This document shows, one piece after another, positions 402-16,914 of a stretch of DNA of 46,341 nucleotides. Source of the stretch: Sphingomonas sp. (GTDB lineage Bacteria > Pseudomonadota > Alphaproteobacteria > Sphingomonadales > Sphingomonadaceae); NCBI GenBank assembly GCA_019747165.1, contig JAIERC010000043.1:1-46341 (forward strand), written 5' to 3'. The notes below the pieces were generated by a model. It was not told where the DNA came from and ran no database searches. It saw nothing but the letters and a program-made list of their open reading frames with translations. Made by a program: the position numbers and the translations under genes. Numbering within the stretch: position 1 is the stretch's first letter; each line of letters starts with the position of its first letter.

Positions 402-755
402 GTGGCTATGCGCATTTTTGCAGCGGCGAAGGAATCGCCGAAAAAGAATAAACGGGCGAGCCGCTACGCGATCAAAGCCAGCGTGTCGCAAGTAGAATAT
501 CAGGAATTGCAGGAGCGCTGCGGCGCGTGCGGCTGCACCATGGCCGATCTCGTTCGGGGGGCGCTTCGGCTTGACCAGCCGTCGCGCGAACGGCCGTTGC
601 TGGTCTGCGCGGGTCAGCTGTTGAGAGCAGGAAATGCGCATGCTGCGGCGTCCGCCGGGAACGATGAGCAAACGGCAATGGAACGCGGCGATGAACTTCG
701 ACGATTAGCCGTCGAGCTGATTGCCCTTGCCGTCGAGCAGGGCGAGCTCAGGTGA
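402..755 (+). CDS. Mobilization accessory protein, MobC/NikA-like ribbon-helix-helix
   Basis: Small basic-N-terminal protein (ASRYAIKASVSQVEYQELQERCGACGCTMADLVRGAL) overlapping the relaxase start by 4 nt; GTG start at 402 or ATG at 408. Confidence 0.65.
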   Translation: MAMRIFAAAKESPKKNKRASRYAIKASVSQVEYQELQERCGACGCTMADLVRGALRLDQPSRERPLLVCAGQLLRAGNAHAAASAGNDEQTAMERGDELRRLAVELIALAVEQGELR

Positions 756-3172
756 TCGTCAATTCGATCTCGCACGAACAACGCCAACGCGCAAAGGCCG
801 CGCGCTCGAAAGCGAAAAGTGTCGGCGAGACAGTGTCCCTTGAGCGCGTGTCCGCCGCCGCGCAGGCGGCGCTTGTGAAGAGTTCCAGCAACTATTTCAT
901 GCAGCCGACGAAAGCGGCGGCACGAGCACTCGGGATCGAGCAGCACATAGCTGGGAAAACCAGCGAATATCTTCATCGGAACAAGGATGGAAATGAACGC
1001 GTCGTCCTAGTCGCACACCGAAATTTCGAAACGGACACACTCATAACGCAACAGGCCGAGATGATCGCGGAAATGACGGCGGTGCCAGACAACGATCATG
1101 CGTTTGAGCATCTCGTAATATCGCCCGGTCACGGAATCGAGCCTACGGAGCAACAGATGAGGGAGGTCCCCGGACGGCTGCTCGATCTGCTCGGCGTTGG
1201 AACGCACAAAGCGTTCGTCGTCTGGCACGGCGATACGGTTCATCCCCATGGTCACATCGGGGTTAGTCGAGTCCATCCCGCCACCGGCAGACGCGTCGTG
1301 ATGGGTGATGGTTGGCTGCTCGAGACGATGGGGCAGGCGATCGCGCAAATCGAATATGAGCAAGGATGGCAGCCGGAACCCAACGCGCGCTATCACGCAA
1401 ATGAATATGGCGTGTTTGCAATGGCCACCCGGATAAAGGTCCGGGACGCCGAGTTCAACCATCTGGCTACCGCACGGGACTATAAGCGGATCCGTGCCGC
1501 AGAAGCAGAACGTGAGGCGAAGCTGAAACTATCGCCGGGCGCGATCGACTACGAGCGTCATCACGGACGATGGAGCGACGAGCGGACGGCGAAGCTTGTT
1601 GCTTGGCCAATCATCCGCGATGCCGCCACTTGGCCCGAACTCCATCGTCAATTGGGACGGTATGGCATCCGCTATGAACAGGAGCGTAGCGGCGCGCGGC
1701 TTTACATCGGTGACCGCCCGGTCACGGCAACGACAGCAAATGGCGCGGCATCCCTTGAGAAACTGAAACCCCGGCTCAAAAGTTTTCAGCCCCGAGCGCC
1801 CGACGTGTTGGTCTACGCGCATGCGCCGCCCATGCTCGACGGGGCGGAGCAGCGAGCTGAAAAGGCAGCGGCTAGGAAGGGCGCGAATGCGGATCGCGAT
1901 CTGGCGAAAACGGTCGCGGACAACGCGAAGGCTATCCTCCTGGAAGAGCATAAGCGCCTGCAGGCGAGTATCAACGAGACCCAATGGGTAGGGCGGGCGA
2001 AGGATCTTGAATTGGTGCGGGGTCTCGTCGGCGCCAGTTACCGAAATGCAAGCTTGGCCGTCGAAGATTGCCGCCGGGACGTCCTTCAAAAGATCCGGCG
2101 ACGACGAGATCGCGATTACGAAGGTCGGGACGGCGACGAACTTGATGACGAAACGGCAGAGAACGCACCCGATATCGCGATCCTCATCGGGAGCAACGGG
2201 CGGCACGATGCATTGGCTTGGACGATCCCCGGGTATGACATTGAGGAGACGCCGACCGAATGCCGCTATCTGAAGGCGAAACAGGTCAAGTTCATCGATC
2301 ATGGAAACTTCATCGCGATCCAGGATGCGACTGATCGACAGGCTGTCACCGATGCGCTCAAGCTTGCCGCGGCGAAATGGGAGCGCGTCCATATCGTCGG
2401 CGATCGGAAGTTCATCGAAACGGCTCTCGACATTGCCATCGATCAAGGAATCGTTGTCACCAATCCCGAACTTCAGGCCAGGATCGCCGAGAAACACGCA
2501 GCGATCGCGCACCGAGACCGGGTTGCAGCTGCGCGTGTCCAGCAGGCAGTCCAGAACTGGCCATTCCTGCACAAGGTTGACAATGCAGTTGTGATGACAA
2601 AGGCCGAGCTGAAACGGCATGGGGTCGATCGCACGCAAATGATGTTGCCAGCGGGTCAAGCAATCTTGCGTGGCCATCATGCGAAGCAGACTGAGGAAAT
2701 GCGACGGCTGAAGGAACGAGTGGTTACCAACCCTCACGCGTTCCTCGACGAACAGAGACGCGTCAGATTCGGGCCCAACGCAGGATCCGACTATTACCCC
2801 CGCGCGCAAAGCTGGATGCGCGATCCGATGTTTGCCGGGGTATTCGAGAAATGGGTCCGCGATGCCATGAACGGCCGGGCTTCGGAACAACCCGGCAACG
2901 TCGCTGGTGCCGCTGTCGCAAGACCTACGGCCCCGCCGAACCAACCGGCTTTAAGTCCTCGAGACATTGCCTTGCGGAACGCTGTCTGGCGCGCATCGGC
3001 ACGATACGGTCGGCGTGTTGCGGCGCAGTGGGATGCGTTAGAGCGTCTCGATCGTGAACGCATGCCTTGCGCTGGCGAACCGCTCTTGCGACCCAACCAG
3101 GACCCGGTTGGCCAAAGCGCATCGACCATTGCGGCGAAGGACCTTATGTCCGGGTCTGCGGCTGAGCTTTAA
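752..3172 (+). CDS. Relaxase/mobilization nuclease (VirD2/MOBP-like) with C-terminal LPD7-like domain
   Basis: Histidine motif WHGDTVHPHGHIGVSRVHPATGRR (relaxase motif III); LPD7-like segment AAKWERVHIVGDRKFIETALDIAIDQGIVVTNPELQ. Confidence 0.85.
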   Translation: MIVNSISHEQRQRAKAARSKAKSVGETVSLERVSAAAQAALVKSSSNYFMQPTKAAARALGIEQHIAGKTSEYLHRNKDGNERVVLVAHRNFETDTLITQQAEMIAEMTAVPDNDHAFEHLVISPGHGIEPTEQQMREVPGRLLDLLGVGTHKAFVVWHGDTVHPHGHIGVSRVHPATGRRVVMGDGWLLETMGQAIAQIEYEQGWQPEPNARYHANEYGVFAMATRIKVRDAEFNHLATARDYKRIRAAEAEREAKLKLSPGAIDYERHHGRWSDERTAKLVAWPIIRDAATWPELHRQLGRYGIRYEQERSGARLYIGDRPVTATTANGAASLEKLKPRLKSFQPRAPDVLVYAHAPPMLDGAEQRAEKAAARKGANADRDLAKTVADNAKAILLEEHKRLQASINETQWVGRAKDLELVRGLVGASYRNASLAVEDCRRDVLQKIRRRRDRDYEGRDGDELDDETAENAPDIAILIGSNGRHDALAWTIPGYDIEETPTECRYLKAKQVKFIDHGNFIAIQDATDRQAVTDALKLAAAKWERVHIVGDRKFIETALDIAIDQGIVVTNPELQARIAEKHAAIAHRDRVAAARVQQAVQNWPFLHKVDNAVVMTKAELKRHGVDRTQMMLPAGQAILRGHHAKQTEEMRRLKERVVTNPHAFLDEQRRVRFGPNAGSDYYPRAQSWMRDPMFAGVFEKWVRDAMNGRASEQPGNVAGAAVARPTAPPNQPALSPRDIALRNAVWRASARYGRRVAAQWDALERLDRERMPCAGEPLLRPNQDPVGQSASTIAAKDLMSGSAAEL

Positions 3173-3757: not shown

Positions 3758-4507
3758 TTAGGCTTTCCGCGAATGCATCGAGATCAATCGCCGGAAGTTG
3801 CGGGTCATTAGGCGCTCTGCATCCTTCGAAGACGTAGCCTTAAGTTGGGCAAAATCGTGATACAGAGATCCGCCCCCGCCGGGGACGAGCGGGACGCCAT
3901 CCGCCGTCCCAAACGGTCCATCCGTCTCGGGCAGCAGACGGTCGACCGGCATTGCGTCGATGGCATCGCGTCCGGATTTACTAACTATCATGCCCGGCCC
4001 CACCGAAAACCAACATCCCAGAGCAGCGGCGCGGTCGATGATTGCAGACTTTGCCGAGAACCAATGAAGTATGAATGTCCCGGCAAGCGGCTCAAACTCT
4101 AGCATATCGAGAAGCATCTCCACTGCCCCGCGACTATGAAGGGAGATAATTCGACCTCCGGCCGCGGCGCAAGCATCGAGAATTTCATGCAACACCTCAG
4201 CCTGAGTTGTGAGGGTCTCGCGGTGCGGTTTTGAGCCGTCGAGCCCAATCTCACCAACATAGTCGGTGGTCGGCAGCAGTTCGTGAAAAAGACGCAGCTC
4301 GTGTCGGCGGGTGGCCGCAAGCTCGGGATGCAGCCCCAACGCGGTGCGGATCCTTCCGCCCTTGGGGACGAGCGCCGAGGTCCCCGCAAACGCACTCGGC
4401 GTCGTCGTCACCGAGAGAATATACACGCCGTCCTCGACGGCCTTGCGGACTGTCGCTGCCGGATCGGGGTAGAGGTCGAGATGGCAATGGAAGTCTATCA
4501 GCGCCAT
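3758..4507 (-). CDS. qatD: QatD: TatD-like metal-dependent DNase
   Basis: MALIDFHCHLDLYPD...GLHPEL...YVGEIGLDGSK...HSRGA...LPETDGPFG TatD-type motifs; start taken at 4507 rather than the ORF-track 4618, overlapping the qatC stop. Confidence 0.85.
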   Translation of the reverse strand: MALIDFHCHLDLYPDPAATVRKAVEDGVYILSVTTTPSAFAGTSALVPKGGRIRTALGLHPELAATRRHELRLFHELLPTTDYVGEIGLDGSKPHRETLTTQAEVLHEILDACAAAGGRIISLHSRGAVEMLLDMLEFEPLAGTFILHWFSAKSAIIDRAAALGCWFSVGPGMIVSKSGRDAIDAMPVDRLLPETDGPFGTADGVPLVPGGGGSLYHDFAQLKATSSKDAERLMTRNFRRLISMHSRKA

Positions 4508-5760
4508 CGAACCGTGCCAAACAAGGCGCCGAGCTCGGCCAAACCGCGGCCAACGGCGTCGATGGTGAGGGCGCGGGTCGCGGCGTCCGCGGGAAGCGGA
4601 CCGGCGCGCGCGACCCATCGACCGATCTCACGGGGACCGTCGCCGTCGTGGGCCGCCACGGCGTGCCTCGCTGCCAACACGTCATCGTTGCGCGAACTTG
4701 CCCGCAGATCGTTGAGATACAACGTGCCGTCATGCATCCCGGCTGCATGAAAGGACGCGCGCCGGATCAGACAGGGGACGCATCTGCCGCACTGCCCGTT
4801 GGCCCGCTTCCCCTTCCCGCAGGAATAGGTCTTGGAGGCAAGGTCGACCAGATGCGGATGGTGGCCCCGCGCAAGCATCTCGCCCTTCGTCGTCGCAAAG
4901 AACGGGTTCCGCAGTTCGGCCTGAACGCCCGTCGCTGCCCAGATCTGGTTCAGTCGTGACATGAAATGCGGATGCGTCGTGCGCGTGCTGAGCGACCCCA
5001 TGCGCCGGTTCGTGAATGGCGGATTGATCGCGATGAGTGCGTTCTCGGGGACCAATACCTCACGGATCCCGCAACCCGTCGCCGCCAACGCGCCATAGGC
5101 GAAGAACAGGATCGACCTGGCGCGTGTCGAGCCCTCGTATGGCTGGCGCCAGCGCTCGGCGACTCGACCTTCGAAACGGTGACCCTCAAGCCCAAGTGCC
5201 GCAGCGAGTTGCTTTTGTGGTCCGATCTCCTTGGCCGAACCCTGACTGACCAGGAACGGGCGGGCACCCCCGTTCAGGGCCGCGACCGCGCCGAGGAAGC
5301 TGTCCAGTCCGCCGGAGAAGAGGCAGATGGCGTCGCGGTCGTGAAGCCGGCCCTCTACGTGTGGACACGCGAGCCCGCCCGCTCGGAAGTTTAAGTGCCA
5401 AACGTCGCCCGTGAGAAAGCGCAGCGCTTCGGCCAGCTCACTTGCCTGCGCGGTCCATGGCATCGGATCGACTACGGCGACGTCGAGGCCAATGACGCGC
5501 GTCCAACCGTTCGGCGAGCCCGACCGCAGGACAAATCGGTCGGCGGCGAAAACCGACATCGCTATTGACATGAAGTCCCAAGCGGCCGCGCTCGGTGCGC
5601 CGGGGATCTGCCTGCGGACACGGTCCGCCAGCGTCGCGCCGAGGCCCGGCAGGTCTGACGTCCCGCTGGCGTAGAGATGGACACCGATTGTGTCCGGTTG
5701 CCGGTGCGACGCGACGGCGTCAGCGGTGATGGGCGTCGCCTGGACGCTGAGGTCTACCAT
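4498..5760 (-). CDS. qatC: QatC: QueC-like (7-cyano-7-deazaguanine synthase-like) PP-loop protein
   Basis: PP-loop ICLFSGGLDSFLGAVAAL; C-terminal Zn cluster CGKGKRANGQCGRCVPC; position between qatB and qatD. Confidence 0.87.
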   Translation of the reverse strand: MVDLSVQATPITADAVASHRQPDTIGVHLYASGTSDLPGLGATLADRVRRQIPGAPSAAAWDFMSIAMSVFAADRFVLRSGSPNGWTRVIGLDVAVVDPMPWTAQASELAEALRFLTGDVWHLNFRAGGLACPHVEGRLHDRDAICLFSGGLDSFLGAVAALNGGARPFLVSQGSAKEIGPQKQLAAALGLEGHRFEGRVAERWRQPYEGSTRARSILFFAYGALAATGCGIREVLVPENALIAINPPFTNRRMGSLSTRTTHPHFMSRLNQIWAATGVQAELRNPFFATTKGEMLARGHHPHLVDLASKTYSCGKGKRANGQCGRCVPCLIRRASFHAAGMHDGTLYLNDLRASSRNDDVLAARHAVAAHDGDGPREIGRWVARAGPLPADAATRALTIDAVGRGLAELGALFGTVRWR

Positions 5761-6536
5761 CGTGCCATCTCCCCATAGACGGCACTCGTTATCTCGACGA
5801 CGATCCCATCTAGGCCGTCTGGGCTCAGCGAGCCACCGCTCCGCTGGATGATCGGGGTGGCGATCTCGTCAGCTGCAGCGCGGACAAGATCCCTTAGAGC
5901 GTTCTCGCGCTGGACCGCGGTCGCGGGCGCCACGTTCTCGGCAGACTTGCCCTGTTCCGCGGCGATCGCCGCGAAGACCAGTTCCGCGACGAAGCATACC
6001 GTCGCGACGACGACCACGTGGTCAGTCACGGCGTTCAGGTCGAATACCGGCTGGTCGCCGAGCGCCTCGAATAGCGCCTCGGCCATCGCCGACCGCACCA
6101 TGTCCTCGTCGAGGATGCCCGGCGGACAGAACTGGTCCACGATAGTTGTGATCGCCTCCTCCAGCGGCCGACCGGCAAGGGTTCCCAAGTCGAAGCCGGC
6201 GACAACCACCGCTGCGCCGTTCGCCTGCGCAACTGATGCCAAGGCCGACAGCGCGGCACCGCCCGTCCGCGCGGCACGCGCATGGCGCGCCGAAGCCCGC
6301 GAGCCTCCCATCGCCCGGGCATAGTTCCCAAGTGCGCGGCGGCCTGCCGCCCTGTCGCCGGTGCCCATGTACTCCCTGAGCGCCCGCCGCGCTCCCGACA
6401 GCGGCGCGGCGGGCAGCACGTCCGGCAGCGCGGGCGCAGGCTGCGGCTGGTCAGGCGCCGGCGGATCCTGATCCGCCCAAGGTGCGACCAGTGGCGATCC
6501 GCCCGGCGTTGATGGCTTCGACTGCGATGTGCCCAT
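5754..6536 (-). CDS. qatB: QatB: Qat anti-phage system associated protein
   Basis: Low-complexity N-terminus and helical body; identity rests mainly on position between KAP ATPase and QueC-like genes and overlap with qatC. Confidence 0.8.
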   Translation of the reverse strand: MGTSQSKPSTPGGSPLVAPWADQDPPAPDQPQPAPALPDVLPAAPLSGARRALREYMGTGDRAAGRRALGNYARAMGGSRASARHARAARTGGAALSALASVAQANGAAVVVAGFDLGTLAGRPLEEAITTIVDQFCPPGILDEDMVRSAMAEALFEALGDQPVFDLNAVTDHVVVVATVCFVAELVFAAIAAEQGKSAENVAPATAVQRENALRDLVRAAADEIATPIIQRSGGSLSPDGLDGIVVEITSAVYGEMARW

Positions 6537-8300
6537 CTACTTTCCCCCCAGATACCCCTTGCCGCGCAGGGCGAACTTCACTCCCGAGTTCATCGTGTCC
6601 CGCGGGATATCGTCAATGAGCGCCTGCAGCTGACGCTTCCCGCCCTCCGACTTTTCGCCGAGCAGGATCGCGCCCTGGATGCCGGGCAGCTTCCCGGTCC
6701 AGTCGCCCTCGCGCAGGCTCGCGACCATTCCCGCCATAACGGCGACGCGCTCGTCGATGTTCAGCCGGTCGATCACGTCAATGGCGGCCGGGGAGTTCAC
6801 GCTCGTCACGCCGAGCAACGCCTGCACGGCGGCCCCGACGCTGTCGCTCGCCCTAGAGCTCGCGGGCGAGGCCATCACGTCGCGGCTGAGGAACAGCGCC
6901 GGCTGCAGCGCCTTGGCGTCATTGAAGCGAGGCTCCAGCCGCCGCCATTCCTCGATGAATGCCTCGTATGCTTTCCATGCCGCCGGGGTCTGCGGGCGCT
7001 TCACGCCGTCCCCTAAATCCTCGGTCGCCTTAAGTTGCAGGTCCGCACCCTCCTCGCCAGCCATGACCATGGTGTAGAGGGCTTGGGTCGCGTCGGAGTC
7101 AGTTCCGCGCTCGAAGATCGCGAGCTTCGCGAGGGTGCCCAGGTCGATCTTCATTTTCCTCGTGGCGGCCAGCGATCTGCGCAGCATCACGGCATTGAGC
7201 AGGCGCTTGATGATGCGCGGGTTGCCGTCGATCTTGTCCGCAGTTGTGAGCGTCGGTGCGAGACCGTCTGCCGTGCCGAGCATCTCGAGGAGCCCGGCGG
7301 GACGTCCGGCGACGCCGTCGATCTGGTCGGCGGTAAAGCTGGCACCGTTCCACGCGTTCTGCAGGGCCTCCAGCAGGACCGCCTGCACCTTGCCAAGCGC
7401 GGCGGGCGCGAGTTTCTGGGTAAACAGGGAATACATGTAGGCGCGCACGTCGTCGACGCCGACGCGTGGGACCCGGAACGGAACCTGGATTACCTTATCA
7501 AGATAGTCGTGGACGTGCTTGGCATTGGGATCGCTGAAGTGCCTCGCCACAGAGTGGCGGATCATGTCCTCATCGGCGGCAACTACGAAGGCGGTGCCGG
7601 GCAGGAAGAGGAATAGGCGAATGGCTTCGAGCGTGCCTATCGCAACATCGGGCAGGCATCGATCGAGGTTGTCGACGAACACGATCAGCGGACGGCCGAG
7701 CTCGTCGAGGATCTCGCCAAACTCCTTGCGGAACGCCGCGATCTCTCTCGGCGGCGTCTTCGCCTCCCCGGGCTTGATCAACTTGGACCAGCCCTCATGG
7801 GCGTCCTTCGCCGCTTCCTTCAGTGCCTTGGCTTCGTCGCCTCCTCCGCCACCGACGACCAGCGATGAGATCGCCGAGCCCGCCTTCGTCAGAAGGCCTG
7901 GCGGCACTCCGAAGGCCATCCCAATTCCGAAGTCGGCCGCCATGCCGATCGCGCGGAAATAATTCACGCGCGACGCGAACTGCTTGATCTTTTCGATTAG
8001 CTTCTCGTCGTCCTTGGCAGCCTTCAGCAAGGTGTCAGCGACCACTTCCATCAAGGCCGCCTTAGAATCATCGAAGCCTTGGTAGAGCCAGGCGTCGAAG
8101 TCGATGAAGAGAGGCGGTGCCTCGCCCCGCTCGAGCTTCCCCCTAACAAGTCGCAGCACCGTGGACTTGCCGGTACCCCAAGTCCCGAACACGCCGATCG
8201 AGAGGGGCAGCATCTCCTCCGTCGTCGCTAGAGCGCCGATCTGGTCCGCCAGTTCAGTGAAATTTAGGAAATCCTCGGCGCTTTCGCGGTCGCTCCACAT
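6537..8300 (-). CDS. qatA: QatA: KAP-family P-loop NTPase
   Basis: Walker A GVFGTWGTGKSTVLRLV; Walker B LIVFVDNLDRCLP; KAP-like FIDFDAWLYQGFDDSKAALMEVVAD; GGGGAGGAG upstream of ATG. Confidence 0.88.
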   Translation of the reverse strand: MWSDRESAEDFLNFTELADQIGALATTEEMLPLSIGVFGTWGTGKSTVLRLVRGKLERGEAPPLFIDFDAWLYQGFDDSKAALMEVVADTLLKAAKDDEKLIEKIKQFASRVNYFRAIGMAADFGIGMAFGVPPGLLTKAGSAISSLVVGGGGGDEAKALKEAAKDAHEGWSKLIKPGEAKTPPREIAAFRKEFGEILDELGRPLIVFVDNLDRCLPDVAIGTLEAIRLFLFLPGTAFVVAADEDMIRHSVARHFSDPNAKHVHDYLDKVIQVPFRVPRVGVDDVRAYMYSLFTQKLAPAALGKVQAVLLEALQNAWNGASFTADQIDGVAGRPAGLLEMLGTADGLAPTLTTADKIDGNPRIIKRLLNAVMLRRSLAATRKMKIDLGTLAKLAIFERGTDSDATQALYTMVMAGEEGADLQLKATEDLGDGVKRPQTPAAWKAYEAFIEEWRRLEPRFNDAKALQPALFLSRDVMASPASSRASDSVGAAVQALLGVTSVNSPAAIDVIDRLNIDERVAVMAGMVASLREGDWTGKLPGIQGAILLGEKSEGGKRQLQALIDDIPRDTMNSGVKFALRGKGYLGGK

Positions 8301-8449: not shown

Positions 8450-11400
8450 TCACCGACCAAGTCCGGCTAGGGTCCGCACATCGTCGAGATGAACCTGCGT
8501 AAACCGCAACCGGACCGGCTCGCCCGCCAATGTCAGCTGTAATTCGGGCGCAACCGCACCAGCGAGTAGCGTGCGTATCTCGCCGTCCGTGGCAGGATTG
8601 GCGTAACGCCACTTGGCGGCGCATGTCGGACACATTGCGAGATGGTTTTCGGCATGCTCAGAAGTGAAGGATTCGAGCAGCTCCGATGCCTCGAAGTAAG
8701 GCGATCCGTCCGGCAATGCAAAGGGCATTTTCTGGTGGCAGCACTGGCAGATCATGTCACCAAGTGGGTTGGTGTAATGGTCTTCAAGATAGGTGCGCGC
8801 CACGGCACGGCTCTCGCCATTGCTCGTCCGCACACTGCGCTGGCGGACCTCATATGCTTTAGCGGGTGCATTCTCGGCTCGAGCGGCGAGGCGCTGAGCT
8901 CGCCGTGTTGGATCCCGCGTTTCGCGCTCGGGAAATTCGACTTGCTCGTAGGCGCGCGTCGCGAGCTTCCGGGCTAAATCCTCGTTCAGCGCTGCCAGGG
9001 CCTCGGCGGGCAGGCCTTCGAGCTGGTCGACCAGCTCGGCGGACAGGCCGATCAGTTCGGCTGCTTTCAGGCGCGCCTTGTGTTGGTCGCTGCGCTTGCG
9101 CTGTTCCTCACCGAAACCGATCGCCTGCAGCCATGCTTCGTTGCCGCCTGGGCTATAACCTGCAGCTAGTTCGGCTGTTGTGATCGCACGTGGCTTCCGC
9201 AAGCTGCCGTCCTTGGCCGGGATCCACGCCGTGTCACAAAGCGCAATGGCAAGCGACGATGGCCGCTGGTTGGCCGCCCGCGACTGATTGGGCGAGTAGG
9301 TGGCGACCATCGCAGATGCGCCGTGCAGTTTGACCGCATCCCAGATCAGCCGAGAGATCGCAGGATCACCCCGATCGAGCAGTTCATCGATCGACTCGAT
9401 AAAGTAATCGATGTCCGTCCCCGTGCCGGTATGGCGTGTCGCGCCGAAGCCATGCTTCAGCTCGGCCCAATGCGGGTGCGAATAGGCGATGGGCGAATAC
9501 ATCACCGAAAGACCGTCCTCGACGCCGCACTCGGTCAGGAACTCGATGAGGTCCTTGCGCTTGAGCTTTTCATAGCCCTCCCATAGCGCCACCCGATCGC
9601 GTCCCTCGATCGTGCCGTCATAGATCAGGCCGAGCGCCGACTGGAGATAGGGCACGTCGAAATATACCGCGTCCGCAACGTGATAGTCTGCCTCCAATCC
9701 CGCTCGGATGAAGCTGACTCCGGCGAACAGGCTTACATCGTCGTGTTCCTTCCACCACCGCAGGAACCGGCGCATATGTTGAAGGTGGCGTTCGCGATTG
9801 GGCCGCGGCCCGTCGCCCTTGTATTGAGTGCGGATGATCGCAGTGAGATATGCTCTCTCGTCGACATCTTTCACGCCGACGCGCCGGAGGAACTGCTCGA
9901 CATCCTTACCGCGCCCGCGACCCAAACGGACTAGGCTGTTCTTGACCAGATATAGATCGCATTGGCCAGCCTCAGGGTCGAGCGCGCTGTCGGCGGGTGC
10001 GAACACGGCGGCGCTAGGTGAGGCGCGCCGGTTTCCTTCAATTCGGACGAAGTGAAGGCTGGCGATCGACGTGGCGCGCTTTTGCGCCTTGAGGGCGGGG
10101 TCCAGCGCCAAATAGAAGCGTTGTGCGTCCTCGTCCGCGAGCCCGTCAAACCAGGCAAGCGCCCGTTTGCGAGCATCAATCTCGGATTGATACCAAAGCT
10201 GAATTTGCCCGAACGCGCGCTGGAAGGCGTTGAAGAACTCGCCATAGCCCCATTCCTCGATCTTGAGCATCGTCAGAAACGCTTCGGTTCGGCTGTTGCG
10301 CAAACCTGTGATGATCCAGCTGCGCCCCGCCTTTCCGCCAAACCGGTCAAGTCCATCGTCCCCGAGCAATTCACGCAGTTCGGCAGGACCCCGCACGGCA
10401 CTGCCGGCGGTCACATAACCCCCGGCATGGGTGGGGATCAGCGGCTCGGCAAGGAACCTCTTCGCGATGATGGAGCGGATCGGCGCGAAGATCGCAGGTA
10501 GCTCGTCGCCACCGTTGGGGAGGAGGTCGAGAACACCGCGCTTCAGCAGGCCACGCTCGCGCAGGTCAGGAGGCGTGTCGGCGACCAACGTCGCCAGTGT
10601 CTCGATCAGCTCGGCGTTCCACGCGTCGTCTAGCTTGATGTTGGCCCGGTTATCGGTGAGCTGGAACGGGCCGTGGATGAGAAAGTGCAACCCCGTAATT
10701 TCCTGGGTCTCGAAGAACACCATCAGCTTTGTCGGGGTGTCCTCGGCGATCAGTTCGCCGCCATCGTTCATCCGTATCGCAGCCTTGACCTCATATTGCT
10801 TGCGCTGCTCACGCTGCTCGACCGTGCGCGTCAGGATCAGGAAGCGCTCGCGATGCGTCGACCGATCAGGGAGGACAGAACGGATTGTGCGCAGTCCCTC
10901 GGCGTTGTCCTCGACCTCGGCATGGCTGGGAGTCGGGCCCTCAAGCCATTCGAGGCGCTTGATGTGCTTCAGAAACAGCAGCGAGCGCGGGCCTCCGGCA
11001 GCGAGGCCGTCGCGCGCGCGACCCAGCGTGGTCGCGGCGGTGTCCGGTCTGAGCGGAAGGACGATGCGCGTGGTCGCGTCGCGATGTTGTGTCGGAATAA
11101 TGCGCGGAACCACAAGATTTTCGATCGCGAAAGCGAGTGGATCGCCTTCGATCCGCGAATGCACTTCAGGCCGTTCGGTGATGACGTAGACCGATTTGAA
11201 GCCGATACCGAAACAGCCGATCTTGTGGCCGTCGTCCAATTTGGTCGTGTTGCCGATTCCTGTGATACCCTCGATATCTTCCCGGTCGAACGGGCGTCCG
11301 TCATGCTCGAACTGGATACGGTCAGGTTCGAGTAGGAAGCGAACCCAGGTCGCCTCGGCATCTTCGGCATTCTGCAGAAGCTCGAAGATGAAATGGCTAG

Positions 11401-11533
11401 GATCCGCATATTTCTCCACGGTAGCGTTCCAGATGCCGCGGTCGAAATTATTCTCGTGGCTGGCATCGACCCAGCGCTGTCGCTTGGCGCGAAGGGCGTC
11501 GAGCCAGATGTCGAAAGGATCGTCCATGATCAA
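8450..11533 (-). CDS. Sacsin N-terminal-like GHKL/Hsp90-type ATPase with C-terminal Cys4 treble-clef/HNH-like region
   Basis: FELLQNAEDAEATWVRF (N box), FEHDGRPF (G1), HKIGCFGIGFKSVYVIT (G2); C-terminus CQCCHQ...YFEASELLESFTSEHAENHLAMCPTCAAKW. Confidence 0.8.
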   Translation of the reverse strand: MIMDDPFDIWLDALRAKRQRWVDASHENNFDRGIWNATVEKYADPSHFIFELLQNAEDAEATWVRFLLEPDRIQFEHDGRPFDREDIEGITGIGNTTKLDDGHKIGCFGIGFKSVYVITERPEVHSRIEGDPLAFAIENLVVPRIIPTQHRDATTRIVLPLRPDTAATTLGRARDGLAAGGPRSLLFLKHIKRLEWLEGPTPSHAEVEDNAEGLRTIRSVLPDRSTHRERFLILTRTVEQREQRKQYEVKAAIRMNDGGELIAEDTPTKLMVFFETQEITGLHFLIHGPFQLTDNRANIKLDDAWNAELIETLATLVADTPPDLRERGLLKRGVLDLLPNGGDELPAIFAPIRSIIAKRFLAEPLIPTHAGGYVTAGSAVRGPAELRELLGDDGLDRFGGKAGRSWIITGLRNSRTEAFLTMLKIEEWGYGEFFNAFQRAFGQIQLWYQSEIDARKRALAWFDGLADEDAQRFYLALDPALKAQKRATSIASLHFVRIEGNRRASPSAAVFAPADSALDPEAGQCDLYLVKNSLVRLGRGRGKDVEQFLRRVGVKDVDERAYLTAIIRTQYKGDGPRPNRERHLQHMRRFLRWWKEHDDVSLFAGVSFIRAGLEADYHVADAVYFDVPYLQSALGLIYDGTIEGRDRVALWEGYEKLKRKDLIEFLTECGVEDGLSVMYSPIAYSHPHWAELKHGFGATRHTGTGTDIDYFIESIDELLDRGDPAISRLIWDAVKLHGASAMVATYSPNQSRAANQRPSSLAIALCDTAWIPAKDGSLRKPRAITTAELAAGYSPGGNEAWLQAIGFGEEQRKRSDQHKARLKAAELIGLSAELVDQLEGLPAEALAALNEDLARKLATRAYEQVEFPERETRDPTRRAQRLAARAENAPAKAYEVRQRSVRTSNGESRAVARTYLEDHYTNPLGDMICQCCHQKMPFALPDGSPYFEASELLESFTSEHAENHLAMCPTCAAKWRYANPATDGEIRTLLAGAVAPELQLTLAGEPVRLRFTQVHLDDVRTLAGLGR

Positions 11534-14500
11534 TGCTCCACGCGCAGGATACCCGCGGCGACGCGGCGGGGCAGGATGTCAGCTCGGCGTTCGGCCGCAG
11601 CGAGATTATCGAGCGCCTCGCGATGGTCCGCATTCGCGCGCGCAAGCTGGCCCTGGCGCATGCGGCGGATGCGATCCTCCGAGACCAGGCTCAACTGCTC
11701 TTCGAGAATCGCGACGCGGGCCCGGTGGCTGGCTTCGAGACTGTCGCGCCGGAACCGCGCGATTTCGCCAGCCTCGGCGATGTGCGCCGTCCGACGTCGG
11801 GTCCATAGTTCGTGATGCCAGCCCTCCAGACCTTCGACGACGGCGATGCTCGGAAGCGCAACATCGTCGGTGTCTTCGGCGGCGGCAAAGATGTCCATGA
11901 ACACCGCGCCGACGGCCGAGTCCTCAACGACGGAAACCAGCATGGCGTCTTCCCGTAGCCCGCGCATCTGCCATTGGTAAATCGCGAAGGGATGGTCGCC
12001 GACCGGCAGGGCCGGGTCGGACACCTTTAGCGCCACTTGTATCTCTTCGTCGCCGGCAAAGGACCGGGCGGCCGCTTGGGTCAGCGGGTGGACCGGCGTA
12101 ATGAAGGCGAGATCGCGATCGGCATTGGCTGTTTCTCGGTCGAAGGTAAGCGCCAGGGTCTGCTGGTCGCCACGCAGCCAGCCCTCCCATTCCCGCTCGG
12201 CAAGGTTCAGCCGCGACCCGCGCGTGCGGGGCGGGACGAGACGCCGACGCGCGTCTGCGGACAGCCGCAAACTCTTGGCCGGACCTTGGCCGCTGATGGG
12301 GTTGCGGCCCACATCCAGCTCGCGCTCGAGATGGAGGCCGACCAACCGTTCGATCGAGCTCGGCTCGAGCCAACGGCTCGATGCCTGCGCAATGTCGTCG
12401 TCGATCTGAGTGCGCTCGATGCGCACGCCGAACAGCTCCGCCTCGCGCTCCTCGAGCGCATCGGTCTCGATGACCTGCCGTATCTCATTGTCGGCGAGTT
12501 GCTGAAGCCGCGCCTCGCGTTCCTCGTCGGTCAGGGTGAAGTCATCCGCCACGGCCTGCAGCGCCCCGGCGATCTCGCCGAGAATTGCCTCGCTGCCGCC
12601 GATGGCACGTTCGAACACGCCGATGCGCAATAGACACCGGTTGAAGATGTCAAAATCGACCGTGCCCGGTGTCACGAAATTGTAGATCGCAACGGTCTGG
12701 CTGGCCTGGCCGTAGCGGTCGATGCGTCCGATCCGTTGCTCGATGCGCATCGGGTTCCACGGGATGTCGTAGTTGACCAGGGCGTCGCAGAACTGGAAGT
12801 CGAGGCCTTCCGAGCCGACTTCGGACGAAAGTAGCACATCGATCGCGTCGTCATGCTCGGGCGGCAGGGCAAACGCCTTGCGCAGCCTTCGACGATCGTC
12901 GTCGGCGACCCCGCCATGGATGAGCCCGACGCGCACGCCGCGCGAGCGCAGCGCCGCCTCGACATAGGCAAGGGTGTGCCGGAACGAGCTGAACAGCAGA
13001 ACGCGCCGATTGGACATCTCCGCCTTTTGGGTAATGATCTCGATCAGCCGCGCGAGTTTGGGATCGTCGTCCGGCAAGCCGCCGGCACGCTCGACAATGG
13101 CAGCAATTTCGGCCCGGATCGAGTCCACCGCGGTTTCGGCATCGTCTAGTTCGCCGCCGCCAATCTCGATGAATTCGAGCTCGGTGAGGCGCCGCGACAG
13201 GATCGTCTCGAGAAAGGGCACAAGGCCATGCAGCGAGCTCGCGGCCTGACGCCGGATCGTGGTCATCAGGAAGCCCAGCGGCCCCGCGCCATGCGTGCGC
13301 AGATAGATCGCGCGCTGCAACGAAAGCAGGTCGTCGTGGATGGCGCGTTGCTCGGGTGTGAACGGAACCTCGATCGTTCGGGCCTTGCGGCTGGTGAAGT
13401 TGCCGATGTCGCGCCGACGCGTGCGGCTGATCATCGAGGCAAAGCTGTGGAGCCCCTCGGCCGGGCGGATCAGACGCACGCGTTCATCGTCTGTTTCCGC
13501 AGCGGCTATCGCAGCCAGCAGGTTACGAAAATCGGGTGACGGCGCCAGCATCGCGCGGCCCCAGTCCGTGCCCGCCGCCTCTTGCAGATGAGACCGTGCT
13601 TGAGCTTGCCAACCCGGCGCGGCGGCGCGAATGGCGGCGATCGCCGCATTGATGGCTTCGTTCGGTTCCGCCATCCGTTCGAAGGTCGGCCGGTCGATCA
13701 CCAAATCGGGACGCATCAGGTTCAGCAGCGAGAAGAGGTCACCGGTCCCCAGCTGGACCGGCGTCGCGGTAATGAGCACCACCGCCTCGGCATTGTCCGC
13801 GAGCAATCGCAGACCTTGATGCAGGCTGGTATCGCTGTTGCGCGCGTTGTGCGCCTCGTCGACGATCAGCAGGTCGAAGCGCGGCGGCGTGTCAAGAGTG
13901 CTCAGCCCCGGGCCACGTCCGCCGCCACGCTGCGAAAAGCCTTGGAGCAAATTCTCATTGACCAACGAGAAGGGCAGGATGGCGCGCGAGAAGCGGTCGG
14001 GCCATTCGCCTTCGAGGTCGCTCTGGTCAAGGCAGTAGCGGAGGTCATCGCTGGTGAGCGTCACGAACTCCTCGTCGAAGCGCCGCATTTCGCGGTGCCA
14101 CTTCTCCTCCACGACGAGCGCCTTGGAGCAAACGATCAGAACGGAACGCAGCGGGCGTCGCGCCTGCAATTCGCGCAGCAGCAGGCCAGCCTCAATCGTC
14201 TTCCCTACGCCCACTTCGTCGGCCACGAGCATGCGCGGGCGATCTGCGCGGACGAATTTGAGCACCGGGCGGAACTGGTAAGGGATAAAATCGATCCGCC
14301 CGGCCTGCAGCGAATAGAGATTTGCGATGCTGGGCTCGGCCAGCTGAAGCGCGGTCAGGCGTGCGCTGAACTCATCCAACGTTGCGCGCACGGCTCCCGG
14401 CGTCAGGTCCGCGGCAATGACCTGGCTGAGATACCAGGTCTCCAGTCGCCCATCGATGAACACGCTGAGCCGCGTTTCGCGATTGCTGGGCGTAATGCCG

Positions 14501-14754
14501 GTGATCACGCCGATCCGGGCGGGATCGGACCGCAGCGAGACGGTATGGCCAATCTGGAGATTGGGTGCGGGCGCAGACTGCGCGGTTTCCATGCGAATCG
14601 CGATGATCTCGCGGACCTTGCGCTCGAGCGCCGCGACATCGACGCCGTGAGCCCGTGCGGCCGCAACTATTTCCTCGTCGCTCGCCTCCAATATGCCTTC
14701 GGCAATGAGCGAGAGAAGCTGGTCGGGATCGCGGGACATTGTCATGAGGTCCAT
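11530..14754 (-). CDS. SF2 helicase of the SNF2/RapA (HepA) type
   Basis: MLVADEVGVGKTIEAGLLLRELQ, LLIVDEAHNARN, VVLITATPVQ, LLSSEVGSEGLDFQFCDALVNYDIPWNPMRIEQRIGRIDRYGQ; overlaps the GHKL gene by 4 nt. Confidence 0.9.
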   Translation of the reverse strand: MDLMTMSRDPDQLLSLIAEGILEASDEEIVAAARAHGVDVAALERKVREIIAIRMETAQSAPAPNLQIGHTVSLRSDPARIGVITGITPSNRETRLSVFIDGRLETWYLSQVIAADLTPGAVRATLDEFSARLTALQLAEPSIANLYSLQAGRIDFIPYQFRPVLKFVRADRPRMLVADEVGVGKTIEAGLLLRELQARRPLRSVLIVCSKALVVEEKWHREMRRFDEEFVTLTSDDLRYCLDQSDLEGEWPDRFSRAILPFSLVNENLLQGFSQRGGGRGPGLSTLDTPPRFDLLIVDEAHNARNSDTSLHQGLRLLADNAEAVVLITATPVQLGTGDLFSLLNLMRPDLVIDRPTFERMAEPNEAINAAIAAIRAAAPGWQAQARSHLQEAAGTDWGRAMLAPSPDFRNLLAAIAAAETDDERVRLIRPAEGLHSFASMISRTRRRDIGNFTSRKARTIEVPFTPEQRAIHDDLLSLQRAIYLRTHGAGPLGFLMTTIRRQAASSLHGLVPFLETILSRRLTELEFIEIGGGELDDAETAVDSIRAEIAAIVERAGGLPDDDPKLARLIEIITQKAEMSNRRVLLFSSFRHTLAYVEAALRSRGVRVGLIHGGVADDDRRRLRKAFALPPEHDDAIDVLLSSEVGSEGLDFQFCDALVNYDIPWNPMRIEQRIGRIDRYGQASQTVAIYNFVTPGTVDFDIFNRCLLRIGVFERAIGGSEAILGEIAGALQAVADDFTLTDEEREARLQQLADNEIRQVIETDALEEREAELFGVRIERTQIDDDIAQASSRWLEPSSIERLVGLHLERELDVGRNPISGQGPAKSLRLSADARRRLVPPRTRGSRLNLAEREWEGWLRGDQQTLALTFDRETANADRDLAFITPVHPLTQAAARSFAGDEEIQVALKVSDPALPVGDHPFAIYQWQMRGLREDAMLVSVVEDSAVGAVFMDIFAAAEDTDDVALPSIAVVEGLEGWHHELWTRRRTAHIAEAGEIARFRRDSLEASHRARVAILEEQLSLVSEDRIRRMRQGQLARANADHREALDNLAAAERRADILPRRVAAGILRVEH

Positions 14755-15293
14755 CCGGGGCTGAATTGGCGTTGTAGAGTACGGATCATCCGACGCCGGG
14801 CCGTGTCGTAGCCGGTTTCATCGATGCCGAGGTGGTTGCGCGCGTCTTTGCGGCTAGTCTGCGCGAGGAGGTGCTCGAATATGCCGAGTGCGTTGGCATC
14901 TTCGAGCAGCACATCGCGCATGCGTTCGACCAGGTCGATAAACTCATTCGACGCGGCCGATCCGCGGTCGTCGGCCACCGCGTCGCTGTCTTCAGTAAGC
15001 GGCTCGCGCTGGTCTTCGTGACGCCATTGGCTGGCGATGCTACGCATCACCTGCGAAAGAAAGGCGGGCAACGGCACCTCCGCTGGCCATGGCCGGTCGC
15101 CCGACAAGGCGCGCGCGAGCGCTTCGTGCAGCAGCTCCGCGGCATCGCGCCGCGGGCAACCGCTCACCCAGGTCTTGGCCAGAGCCGCGAGACGCAGCAG
15201 ATCGACTTGGCGTAACCGACTTAGCAGCCGGCTCACCTCCTCAATCGATAGCGTTTCGACTCCGTCCGGCATGTCCGACAGGTCTCCCTTCAC
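14742..15293 (-). CDS. Sigma70/ECF-like protein, first gene of the helicase-GHKL operon
   Basis: Region 2-like RRDAAELLHEALARALSGDRPWPAEVPLPAFLSQVMRSIASQWRHEDQRE and region 4-like DARNHLGIDETGYDTARRRMIRTLQRQF; 3' end overlaps the helicase start. Confidence 0.6.
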   Translation of the reverse strand: MKGDLSDMPDGVETLSIEEVSRLLSRLRQVDLLRLAALAKTWVSGCPRRDAAELLHEALARALSGDRPWPAEVPLPAFLSQVMRSIASQWRHEDQREPLTEDSDAVADDRGSAASNEFIDLVERMRDVLLEDANALGIFEHLLAQTSRKDARNHLGIDETGYDTARRRMIRTLQRQFSPGWTS

Positions 15294-15707
15294 ATCTGTT
15301 ACGGAGATGAGAGGGAAAACGGGAAGCGACGAGGAAAAAAGTTTGAACCGGGTCGCGGTGTCGGATCATAGCCACAACGCCGGGTCACCATGACTTCATC
15401 TTGCACAGGCGGCCGCGATCGCCTTCGTCGTGAAGCCGCACCTCGGCTTCGTCATCGTCGAAAATCTCGTCGCCGTCGTCGCGGTGTGAGTTCGGAATCA
15501 ATAAGCGTGATGATCGATGGCAGGCCCAGTGCCGTTTAACCCCATACCCGCGAGTTGATCAAGGGCGGTCGAGGCTTGCGATCCAATAACGATCTAGTTT
15601 GAGCCGTTCGGATCAGCAGTGGCACGGCGTCTGTTTTTCGCGTGGTCGAGCTAAATACCGACAGACCGCTGCCGGCTCACTTCGTCCATCCACGCGCCCC
15701 TGCCCGG

Positions 15708-16607
15708 TCAACTAACGCCGTCCCCCGCAGCACTGCGTGCCAACCAGAACCCTGGCACCAATTCGGCGTATCGCTTTTTCTGGTCAGCGGCTGCCCCGAG
15801 GGTCACAATCATCAACGAAAATGGCGTGTGCTGGCCCTGTCCTCGCGAGTCCAAAAACCGCACGCGCCCCCTCAGCAAGTAAATCTCTGCGTCGGCGCTC
15901 AGCGTATCGTGAAACCAGCGCGAATCGGTTCGAACGGGGACGAGGCAAACAACGGTCTCGACCGTTCCTGCTCGCCACTGGTCATGGGCACGCTGCAGCC
16001 ATTTGAGAAGCTCAGAGAAGGGTGGGTTGACGAACACGAGCCTGCCCCACCAGGCGTCAGTCAGCCCGTCGCCGCCCTCGCTCAACAAAATTCGGCGGCG
16101 CGCGATGACCGGACTGAGCAGGTGGCCGCAGGGGTCGAGATCGATTTCACCAAATGCCGCATAGATCGCAGCCATGAAGTCAGGCGGCGTGAAGCGGCTG
16201 TCGCGATCGTCCTTGTCGCCCTGTCCCCAATAGCTCCGCTCTTGCGCGCGTCGCCGCGCCTGGGGCGCAAGCACCGCCATCAAACGAATCAGGCTTTTCA
16301 CCGACCCGCCGCCCCGTTCCAGACTGGCGATGGTCGTCCTCGATAGCTTTGTCTTGGCCGTCAGTTCGTCGAGCGTCACCGAGCGTTTGCGTCGGGTGGC
16401 GCGCAATTGTTGGGCCAGAGTTCTGCCTGGGCCCACGCCGGTAAGACGAAAATCCAACGCCGTCATCACCGTCACGAGGGTCGCGACCGAGCCAACACCT
16501 TTTTCCAGCCGTTTGATGGTCTGGGCATCGACACCGACCCGTTCGGCCAAAGTGCGTTGCGACCATCCCGCCAGCCGCCTTGCCTCGCGCAATTCTTTGA
16601 GCAGCAT
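15708..16607 (-). CDS. Tandem XRE HTH protein fused to phage-type Dam adenine methyltransferase domain
   Basis: Two HTH units (LKELREARRLAGWSQRTLAERVGVDAQTIKRLEKG; TLDELTAKTKLSRTTIASLERG), then FTPPDFMAAIYAAFGEIDLDPCGH...GRLVFVNPPFSELLKWLQRA. ATG at 16607 preferred over ORF-track TTG at 16643. Confidence 0.75.
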   Translation of the reverse strand: MLLKELREARRLAGWSQRTLAERVGVDAQTIKRLEKGVGSVATLVTVMTALDFRLTGVGPGRTLAQQLRATRRKRSVTLDELTAKTKLSRTTIASLERGGGSVKSLIRLMAVLAPQARRRAQERSYWGQGDKDDRDSRFTPPDFMAAIYAAFGEIDLDPCGHLLSPVIARRRILLSEGGDGLTDAWWGRLVFVNPPFSELLKWLQRAHDQWRAGTVETVVCLVPVRTDSRWFHDTLSADAEIYLLRGRVRFLDSRGQGQHTPFSLMIVTLGAAADQKKRYAELVPGFWLARSAAGDGVS

Positions 16608-16617
16608 TCGATCCCAT

Positions 16618-16638
16618 TTGGGTTTAAATTCTACCCAA
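16618..16638. promoter_or_regulatory. Candidate operator of the XRE-Dam gene
   Basis: Perfect dyad TTGGGT-N9-ACCCAA directly upstream of the preferred ATG. Confidence 0.45.
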
Positions 16639-16914
16639 TACAATTCAAGGTCGGGGCCGGCAACTCCCAGAATTCACTCGAGCTTGTTCTCGATCCCCGA
16701 GGCTGGAGCTGGCGGGCACGGCTGCCCACGTCGCACTCGCATTTCGAACATGGCGGCATGTCATGCCGCCAATGGCAGAGGGGGAGGCGGCTGCTTCCGG
16801 GGCGATTCGGGTGGAATGCGGAATGGCCGCTTTGGAGCAGCGGTCCGAAGTAAGCGGACATCGCGCCAAACCTCCCACATTGCCCTTACACCGTCGTCCG
16901 GCGCAGTCGAGTTT

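What the first reader, a model, noticed from the sequence alone, without database searches (positions are those of the whole stretch)
8450..15293. Translationally coupled sigma70-like / SNF2-RapA helicase / sacsin-GHKL ATPase trio: candidate undescribed defence system
Three minus-strand genes run 15293->8450. The sigma-like gene end overlaps the helicase start (~13 nt) and the helicase stop overlaps the GHKL start by 4 nt, so they form one unit. The helicase has complete RapA-type motifs and the ATPase complete N/G1/G2 boxes. Established: helicase plus large ATPase combinations are common in defence systems (DISARM, Zorya, Hachiman, Azaca). I cannot match this exact trio to a named system from memory. 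Inference: the helicase translocates on foreign DNA, the GHKL protein acts as a gated clamp or effector, and the sigma-like protein regulates or tethers. Position next to QatABCD supports a defence role.
Basis: partly seen in the sequence, partly recalled or inferred. Interest (0 to 1): 0.85.

Follow-up and report, generated by a model that had tools for sequence, protein, structure and literature searches.

The report
Sigma-switched helicase-ATPase defence operon
A three-gene unit in alphaproteobacterial defence islands pairs a DNA-motor protein and a chaperone-like ATPase with its own dedicated transcription-initiation (sigma) factor, which appears to switch on the unit's single promoter; a sigma factor inside an anti-virus operon has not, as far as I could find, been described.

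Summary
The trio is real: sigma-like, DrmD/RapA-type SNF2 helicase and sacsin-type GHKL genes, overlapping or nearly so, on the minus strand. It recurs as one unit, in the same order, in 14 other alphaproteobacterial copies. Most sit beside known defence systems (Qat, IetAS, Lamassu-like, ABC-3C, SPARTA-like). No PADLOC system matches it. New here: (1) the small protein is most probably a true ECF-type sigma. Upstream of it, in 15/15 copies, lies a -35/-10 element [T/A]TCCC-17 bp-CGYA; in the window's genome the consensus pattern occurs only there. (2) Its relatives head separate sigma + small protein + ImmA/IrrE cassettes beside CBASS and ubiquitin-like (E1-E2/JAB) operons. The helicase's N-terminal ~45 residues resemble that small protein, and three related helicases without a sigma gene lack them. 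I infer a sigma-partner (anti-sigma-like) domain. (3) The GHKL C-terminus is an McrA-like HNH fold that kept its zinc cysteines and lost the catalytic histidines. In one natural chimera this module stayed while the other ~880 residues were replaced. Best reading: a sigma-autoregulated, apparently non-nucleolytic helicase/GHKL defence module. Antiphage activity, sigma function and anti-sigma role are untested. Helicase+GHKL pairing was foreseen (Iyer 2008); sigma control looks new.

The parts
15299..15326 (-). Dedicated promoter: -35 CTTCCC (15321-15326), 17-bp spacer, -10 CGTAA (15299-15303)
   Evidence: Same element with invariant 17-bp spacing in 15/15 copies; only match of the consensus pattern in the 2.68-Mb genome; 28-mer conservation score 230 against a shuffled maximum of 181
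15335..15344 (-). A/T tract upstream of the -35, UP-element-like
   Evidence: AAA....TTT columns conserved in the 13 aligned loci; function inferred
14742..15272 (-).
   Evidence: Alignment A4; low-confidence model whose best PDB matches are ECF sigmas; weak sigma-70/ECF HMM hits; conserved promoter
11530..14745 (-). DrmD/RapA-type SNF2 helicase/translocase (ATG 14745, 4-nt overlap with the sigma stop)
   Evidence: PADLOC DrmD 2e-104; PDB closest RapA 4e-39; 72-90% identity across 13 loci
14575..14712 (-). Helicase N-terminal sigma-partner-like domain (residues ~12-57)
   Evidence: Profile of sigma-cassette small proteins finds it above 2000 shuffled decoys; absent from helicases without a sigma gene
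8450..11527 (-). Sacsin-type GHKL ATPase (1025 aa)
   Evidence: Pfam SACS 3e-18, NCBIfam P_loop_sacsin 1e-25; PDB sacsin 7e-10; alignments A1, A5
8594..8773 (-). McrA-like HNH fold at the GHKL C-terminus: zinc cysteines kept, catalytic histidines lost
   Evidence: Matches McrA 6ghc 211-272, E 1e-6; HH replaced by xE and CPNCH by CPxCA; same in all family members
3758..8300 (-). QatABCD, a separate known defence system next to the trio (context, not part of it)
   Evidence: PADLOC QatA 7e-173, QatB 1e-31, QatC 1e-89, QatD 1e-79

Best explanation
A mobile antiviral module with a built-in transcriptional switch. Shown by sequence: one operon of an ECF-like sigma gene, a DrmD/RapA-type SNF2 motor and a sacsin-type GHKL ATPase, headed by one conserved, dedicated -35/-10 element. 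Inferred: the sigma loads RNA polymerase on that element and amplifies the whole operon (positive feedback). The helicase's N-terminal domain, which resembles the protein encoded directly after the sigma gene in independent sigma + small protein + ImmA/IrrE cassettes, binds and restrains the sigma; when the motor engages foreign or abnormal DNA the sigma is freed. The degenerate McrA-like domain docks the GHKL protein to the conserved sigma/helicase part. The variable GHKL/middle region senses or acts in an ATP-gated, chaperone- or clamp-like way, because no nuclease active site is recognisable in any of the three proteins. Subjective confidence: conserved operon 0.98; genuine promoter-directing sigma 0.85; antiviral role 0.8; helicase N-terminus as sigma partner 0.5; non-nucleolytic GHKL effector 0.4.
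For: Trio in the same order in 12 further complete copies, plus one split over two contigs and a second R. leguminosarum copy with a diverged GHKL. Independent sigma, GHKL and helicase searches of 72,556 plasmids retrieve the same three replicons, then drop to 30-37%. Promoter; the 17-bp spacing is invariant. Two copies not used to define it carry it too. In the trio-bearing genomes, matches outside trio promoters (17) do not exceed the reversed-pattern control (20). ECF fold. Sigma relatives lead small-protein + ImmA cassettes beside CBASS and E1-E2/JAB operons, five of seven with mirrored promoter pairs. Helicase N-terminus resembles the small protein. HNH degeneracy. GHKL chimera: 22-41% over ~900 residues, then 83% and 63%. 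Defence neighbours.
Against: No experiment. The sigma misses the curated ECF cut-off (14-15 bits against 42.9) and its region-2 model is poor. The -35/-10 assignment is by sequence only; a repressor or activator operator at that place is possible. Helicase/small-protein homology is weak (hhalign probability 31%, P 5e-4 with three sequences; better with six) and was noticed before it was tested. No ImmA-like protease accompanies the trio, so the release signal is unknown. Known defence controllers (CapW/BrxR, CapH+CapP, CapK+CapS) are repressor-based (PMC13373217), so there is no precedent. No background rate of defence genes in random flanks was computed.
Confidence: 0.6

Rival explanations
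1. The sigma-like protein is a DNA-recognition or tethering subunit of a helicase/GHKL complex and does not start transcription.
For: Sigma-HTH-like domains serve as DNA-binding parts in other defence proteins (BrxL, PMC12839542); the helicase is RapA-like, and RapA binds RNA polymerase (my knowledge).
Against: Both region-2- and region-4-like parts are conserved, and a dedicated -35/-10 element lies before the gene in 15/15 copies. Relatives in cassettes also have cognate, often mirrored promoters.
Confidence: 0.12
2. A restriction-like system that degrades DNA: the helicase translocates and the HNH domain or an unlinked nuclease cuts (paraMORC/DISARM-like).
For: paraMORC GHKL + SNF2 helicase + nuclease operons (PMC2292703); McrA similarity of the C-terminus; an orphan HTH-Dam methyltransferase lies upstream in the window at 15708-16643.
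Against: HNH catalytic histidines replaced throughout the family; no methyltransferase or nuclease conserved with the trio; HTH-Dam has no match in 15 loci holding the other copies.
Confidence: 0.2
3. The conserved element is the site of another regulator or an unusual housekeeping-sigma promoter, and the sigma-like protein is vestigial.
For: The 17-bp spacing and part of each hexamer resemble alphaproteobacterial RpoD promoters (CTTGAC-N17-TATAAT; my knowledge).
Against: The deviating bases (CCC, CG) are the invariant ones; the pattern is unique in the window's genome; the sigma gene is intact in 15/15 copies and coupled to the helicase.
Confidence: 0.12
4. Not antiviral: a plasmid/chromosome transaction or transcription-recycling module that happens to sit in islands.
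For: RapA homology; some copies lie on conjugative or large plasmids; no phenotype known.
Against: Patchy distribution; at least 9 of 15 copies beside recognised defence genes; helicase and GHKL families both recur in defence systems.
Confidence: 0.15

Closest known systems
Tiamat (TmtA)
   Same: N-terminal sacsin-type GHKL region matches TmtA models (best 2e-47, residues 14-572 of a 1302-position profile)
   Different: Tiamat is a single-gene system (my knowledge); here there are helicase and sigma partners and a different, McrA-like C-terminus. TmtA models also match other sacsin-GHKL proteins in other gene contexts
DISARM class 1 (DrmD) and BREX type 3 (BrxHII), RapA-type SNF2 helicases
   Same: Helicase aligns over most of its length with DrmD (2e-104) and with RapA/BrxHII
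   Different: Below NCBIfam DrmD and RapA equivalog cut-offs (317 of 610 and 194 of 576 bits); no DrmA/B/C, PglZ or methyltransferase partners conserved; extra N-terminal domain
MORC/paraMORC + SFII helicase restriction-like operons (Iyer et al. 2008, PMC2292703)
   Same: GHKL ATPase with an SNF2-type helicase in a predicted defence operon
   Different: Those neighbourhoods carry methylases and/or active nucleases; none is conserved here and the HNH is degenerate; the parts of that paper I read mention no sigma factor
Immune-operon controllers CapW/BrxR, CapH+CapP, CapK+CapS (PMC13373217)
   Same: A regulatory gene packaged with the immune operon; sigma relatives occur with ImmA/IrrE proteases beside CBASS, as CapH+CapP does
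   Different: Those are repressors relieved by ssDNA or phosphorylation; here the controller would be an activating sigma factor
Helicase-GHKL dyad in Methanomethylovorans (L021)
   Same: Helicase + GHKL with the same zinc C-terminus (27-31% identity)
   Different: Archaeal; no sigma gene and no N-terminal extension on the helicase

Membership tests
ECF sigma factor | Regions sigma2 and sigma4 with ECF fold | tested here: inconclusive
   HMM hits below cut-off; top PDB fold matches are nearly all ECF sigmas, but none at E<0.001 and sigma2 is modelled poorly
ECF sigma factor | Cognate, autoregulated -35/-10 promoter | tested here: met
   15/15 copies, 17-bp spacing, dedicated in the genome; sequence evidence only
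ECF sigma factor | Binds core RNA polymerase and initiates transcription | not testable with these tools
   Needs biochemistry
Tiamat | Full-length TmtA match | tested here: inconclusive
   Partial match, profile 10-576 of 1302
Tiamat | Single-gene system | tested here: not met
   Conserved three-gene operon
DISARM | DrmD equivalog plus DrmA/DrmB/DrmC | tested here: not met
   317 of 610 bits; no Drm partners among the neighbours examined
RapA (RNA polymerase recycling) | RapA equivalog cut-off | tested here: not met
   194 of 576 bits; RapA_C below cut-off
BREX type 3 | BrxHII with PglZ and PglX | tested here: not met
   Helicase similarity only; no PglZ/PglX among the neighbours examined
paraMORC restriction-like system | GHKL ATPase with SFII helicase | tested here: met
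paraMORC restriction-like system | Associated nuclease and/or DNA methylase | tested here: not met
   HNH histidines lost; no methylase or nuclease conserved across loci
McrA-type HNH nuclease | Catalytic HH...N...H | tested here: not met
   HH to xE and CPNCH to CPxCA, N and zinc cysteines kept
CapH+CapP type controller | HTH repressor with ImmA/IrrE protease | tested here: not met
   Neither gene is in the trio; ImmA occurs only in the related sigma cassettes

The most novel reading that the evidence does not exclude
A sigma-factor-switched immune system in which the helicase itself is the anti-sigma: its N-terminal domain holds a dedicated ECF sigma, and engagement of invading DNA frees the sigma to fire the operon's only promoter. 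Together with the sigma + small protein + ImmA/IrrE cassettes found beside CBASS and ubiquitin-like systems, this would define a fourth, activator-type class of defence controllers beside CapW/BrxR, CapH+CapP and CapK+CapS.
Probability: 0.33. Interest if true: 0.87.

Novelty: new variant of a known kind. Interest (0 to 1): 0.75.

Why it matters
How bacteria keep costly immune operons quiet until needed is an open question, and the operon-encoded controllers described in the paper I could read are repressors. A dedicated sigma that drives one promoter gives a clean, testable switch with a reporter ready to build. The sigma-cassette family offers the same logic for CBASS and ubiquitin-like systems, including one in the laboratory strain Cereibacter sphaeroides 2.4.1. 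The GHKL chimera points to which part varies (GHKL/middle) and which docks (McrA-like module).

Tried and rejected
Full GHKL structure prediction gave pLDDT 48 and was not used. The sigma has no PDB sequence match. A search for the sigma in 386 Alphaproteobacteria found only distant relatives in other contexts. Small-protein searches in Alphaproteobacteria found nothing useful; the E>1 plasmid hits of the helicase N-terminus are unrelated genes and were dropped. A first helicase/small-protein HMM test with one sequence failed; pairwise and profile tests with more members succeeded. HTH-Dam was considered as a fourth gene and rejected: no match in the other trio loci. Literature searches for a sigma factor inside a defence operon found none, in a library limited to open-licence papers.
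Full report
OBSERVATION. The three genes are present as stated. Comparison with 12 complete relatives moves the likely starts to ATG 15272 (sigma), ATG 14745 (helicase; 4-nt ATGA overlap) and ATG 11527 (GHKL; just after the helicase stop). Domain assignments hold: Pfam SACS, SNF2-rel_dom and Helicase_C; PADLOC DrmD 2e-104 and TmtA 2e-47 for single genes, no hit for the sigma-like protein, and QatABCD confirmed next door. No single PADLOC system accounts for the trio.

CONSERVATION. Three independent tblastn searches of 72,556 plasmids, with sigma, GHKL and helicase, each return the same three rhizobial replicons as the only close matches; the next hits fall to 31%, 37% and 30% identity. A scan of 85,462 species genomes with the GHKL alignment gave 11 loci: nine with the complete trio in the same order, one truncated by a contig end (its sigma and helicase lie on another contig of the same genome), and one degraded in Bradyrhizobium retamae. 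A second copy in R. leguminosarum (L076) has sigma 55%, helicase 71%, but a GHKL only 31% identical. That makes 15 copies with an intact sigma gene, the window included. Helicase identity to the window is 72-90%, sigma 53-74%, GHKL 54-78% apart from L076. The scan used two strict peptide patterns, so the true frequency is probably higher than found.

CONTEXT. Neighbours differ from locus to locus and are mostly defence genes: Qat (window, L012, L016), IetAS or its parts (L010, L012, L015, L019), Lamassu-like pair (L006, L018), ABC-three-component system (L007), SPARTA-like TIR/pAgo-associated protein (L019); weaker cases are L008 (RecB-like, MkoA/MkoC hits) and L013 (REase-like). So at least 9 of 15 copies lie beside recognised defence genes. 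The Qat copies are only ~28-51% identical to the window's and sit in different orientations, which suggests repeated linkage. No background rate was computed for random flanks.

SIGMA. The small protein misses curated ECF thresholds (14-15 bits against 42.9) but hits ECF/sigma-70 models weakly. Its low-confidence model (pLDDT 57; C-terminal HTH region 78-90) retrieves almost only ECF sigma structures, best M. tuberculosis SigH E 0.018, and the sigma4 of SigD at TM 0.74 over ~60 residues. The decisive sequence evidence is upstream. In all 13 aligned loci an ungapped element CTTCCC-(R)-TTTT ... CGYAA, with exactly 17 bp between the boxes, lies 48-52 nt before the ATG, preceded by an A/T tract, while the rest of the upstream DNA does not align. 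L008 has CATCCC, and the last base of the -10 varies in a few copies. Two copies not used to define it (L058, L060) carry it too. The best 28-mer scores 230 matches against a maximum of 181 in 60 locally shuffled sets. In the window's 2.68-Mb genome the consensus pattern occurs once, at this place. Across 14 other genomes or replicons, 12 of 29 matches are trio promoters; the other 17 do not exceed the reversed-pattern control of 20. So the element is dedicated to this operon and, by inference, is the sigma's own promoter.

SIGMA FAMILY. Relatives of the sigma (profile E 1e-10 to 1e-25) lead three-gene cassettes: sigma, a ~140-aa protein mostly starting in a 4-nt overlap, and an ImmA/IrrE protease. 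They are divergent from CBASS (L067, L073) or E1-E2/JAB ubiquitin-like operons (L065, L066; PADLOC), or lie near other island genes. Five of seven intergenic regions hold the -10-like motif in both orientations, four of them with ATGTCCG about 15-16 nt before CCGCATA on each side, as expected if the sigma fires both its cassette and the divergent operon. The N-terminal ~45 residues of the trio helicases resemble the N-terminus of the cassette small proteins. Hhalign with three sequences gives P 5e-4, probability 31%; a profile of six small proteins ranks seven of 13 full-length helicases above all 2000 shuffled decoys, always at residues 12-59. Helicases of the same broad family without a sigma gene (L021, L023, L024) begin directly at the following domain and lack this part. 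I infer a sigma-partner, possibly anti-sigma, domain. This is moderate evidence, noticed before it was tested.

GHKL PROTEIN. Residues ~39-126 match sacsin. Residues 921-980 match the HNH domain of McrA (6ghc, E 1e-6), but the catalytic His-His is replaced by x-Glu and the His after CPxC by Ala in the family, while the zinc cysteines and Asn remain. The archaeal homologue has likewise lost the His-His. L076 is a natural chimera: 22-41% identity to L008 over the first ~900 residues, then 83% and 63%. The C-terminal module therefore stays with the sigma/helicase pair, while the GHKL/middle part is exchanged, which fits a docking module plus a variable sensor/effector. No nuclease active site was recognised in the three proteins, though a hidden one in the helicase C-terminal region was not excluded by structure.

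MECHANISM. Shown: operon, conservation, dedicated element, domain make-up, chimera. Inferred: sigma-driven positive feedback; restraint by the helicase N-terminus; release on DNA engagement; an ATP-gated GHKL action. The trigger is unknown. The helicase+GHKL idea predates this work (PMC2292703). Controllers described for immune operons are repressor-based (PMC13373217). I found no paper describing a sigma factor inside a defence operon, in a library that lacks most subscription papers.

VERDICT. A real, recurrent, probably antiviral unit: a new variant of helicase/GHKL defence with an apparently new control principle. Interest 0.75.

Noticed in passing
L065, L066, L067, L072, L073, L074, L075: Three-gene cassettes of ECF-like sigma + ~140-aa protein + ImmA/IrrE protease beside CBASS, E1-E2/JAB and other island genes, with mirrored TGTCCG-N15/16-CCGCATA promoter pairs in most; includes the laboratory strain C. 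sphaeroides 2.4.1 (L073). Looks like an undescribed activator-type controller of immune operons.
   Followed up: partly
L076:10428-13601: Second R. leguminosarum copy: GHKL protein is a chimera, with the C-terminal ~150 residues close to the L008 copy and the rest only 22-41% identical.
   Followed up: yes
L021:6998-14458: Archaeal plasmid (Methanomethylovorans) with coiled-coil protein + DrmD-like helicase + sacsin-GHKL protein with the same zinc C-terminus; no sigma gene.
   Followed up: partly
L022:7300-15835: Sulfuricurvum plasmid: NERD-domain protein and sacsin-GHKL/DUF3883 protein directly upstream of QatABCD, another GHKL-Qat neighbourhood.
   Followed up: no
window 15708-16643 (-): Two HTH domains fused to a phage-type Dam N6-adenine methyltransferase upstream of the trio; no match in the other trio loci.
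   Followed up: partly
window 752-3172 (+): MobA/VirD2-type relaxase with LPD7 domain about 5 kb from the trio: the island end looks like a mobilisable element.
   Followed up: no
L020:3044-4414: Degraded remnant of the trio in Bradyrhizobium retamae (fragments of all three genes).
   Followed up: no
L006:15281-17242: A gene annotated as elongation factor G directly downstream of the trio on a Rhizobium plasmid, in a defence island.
   Followed up: no
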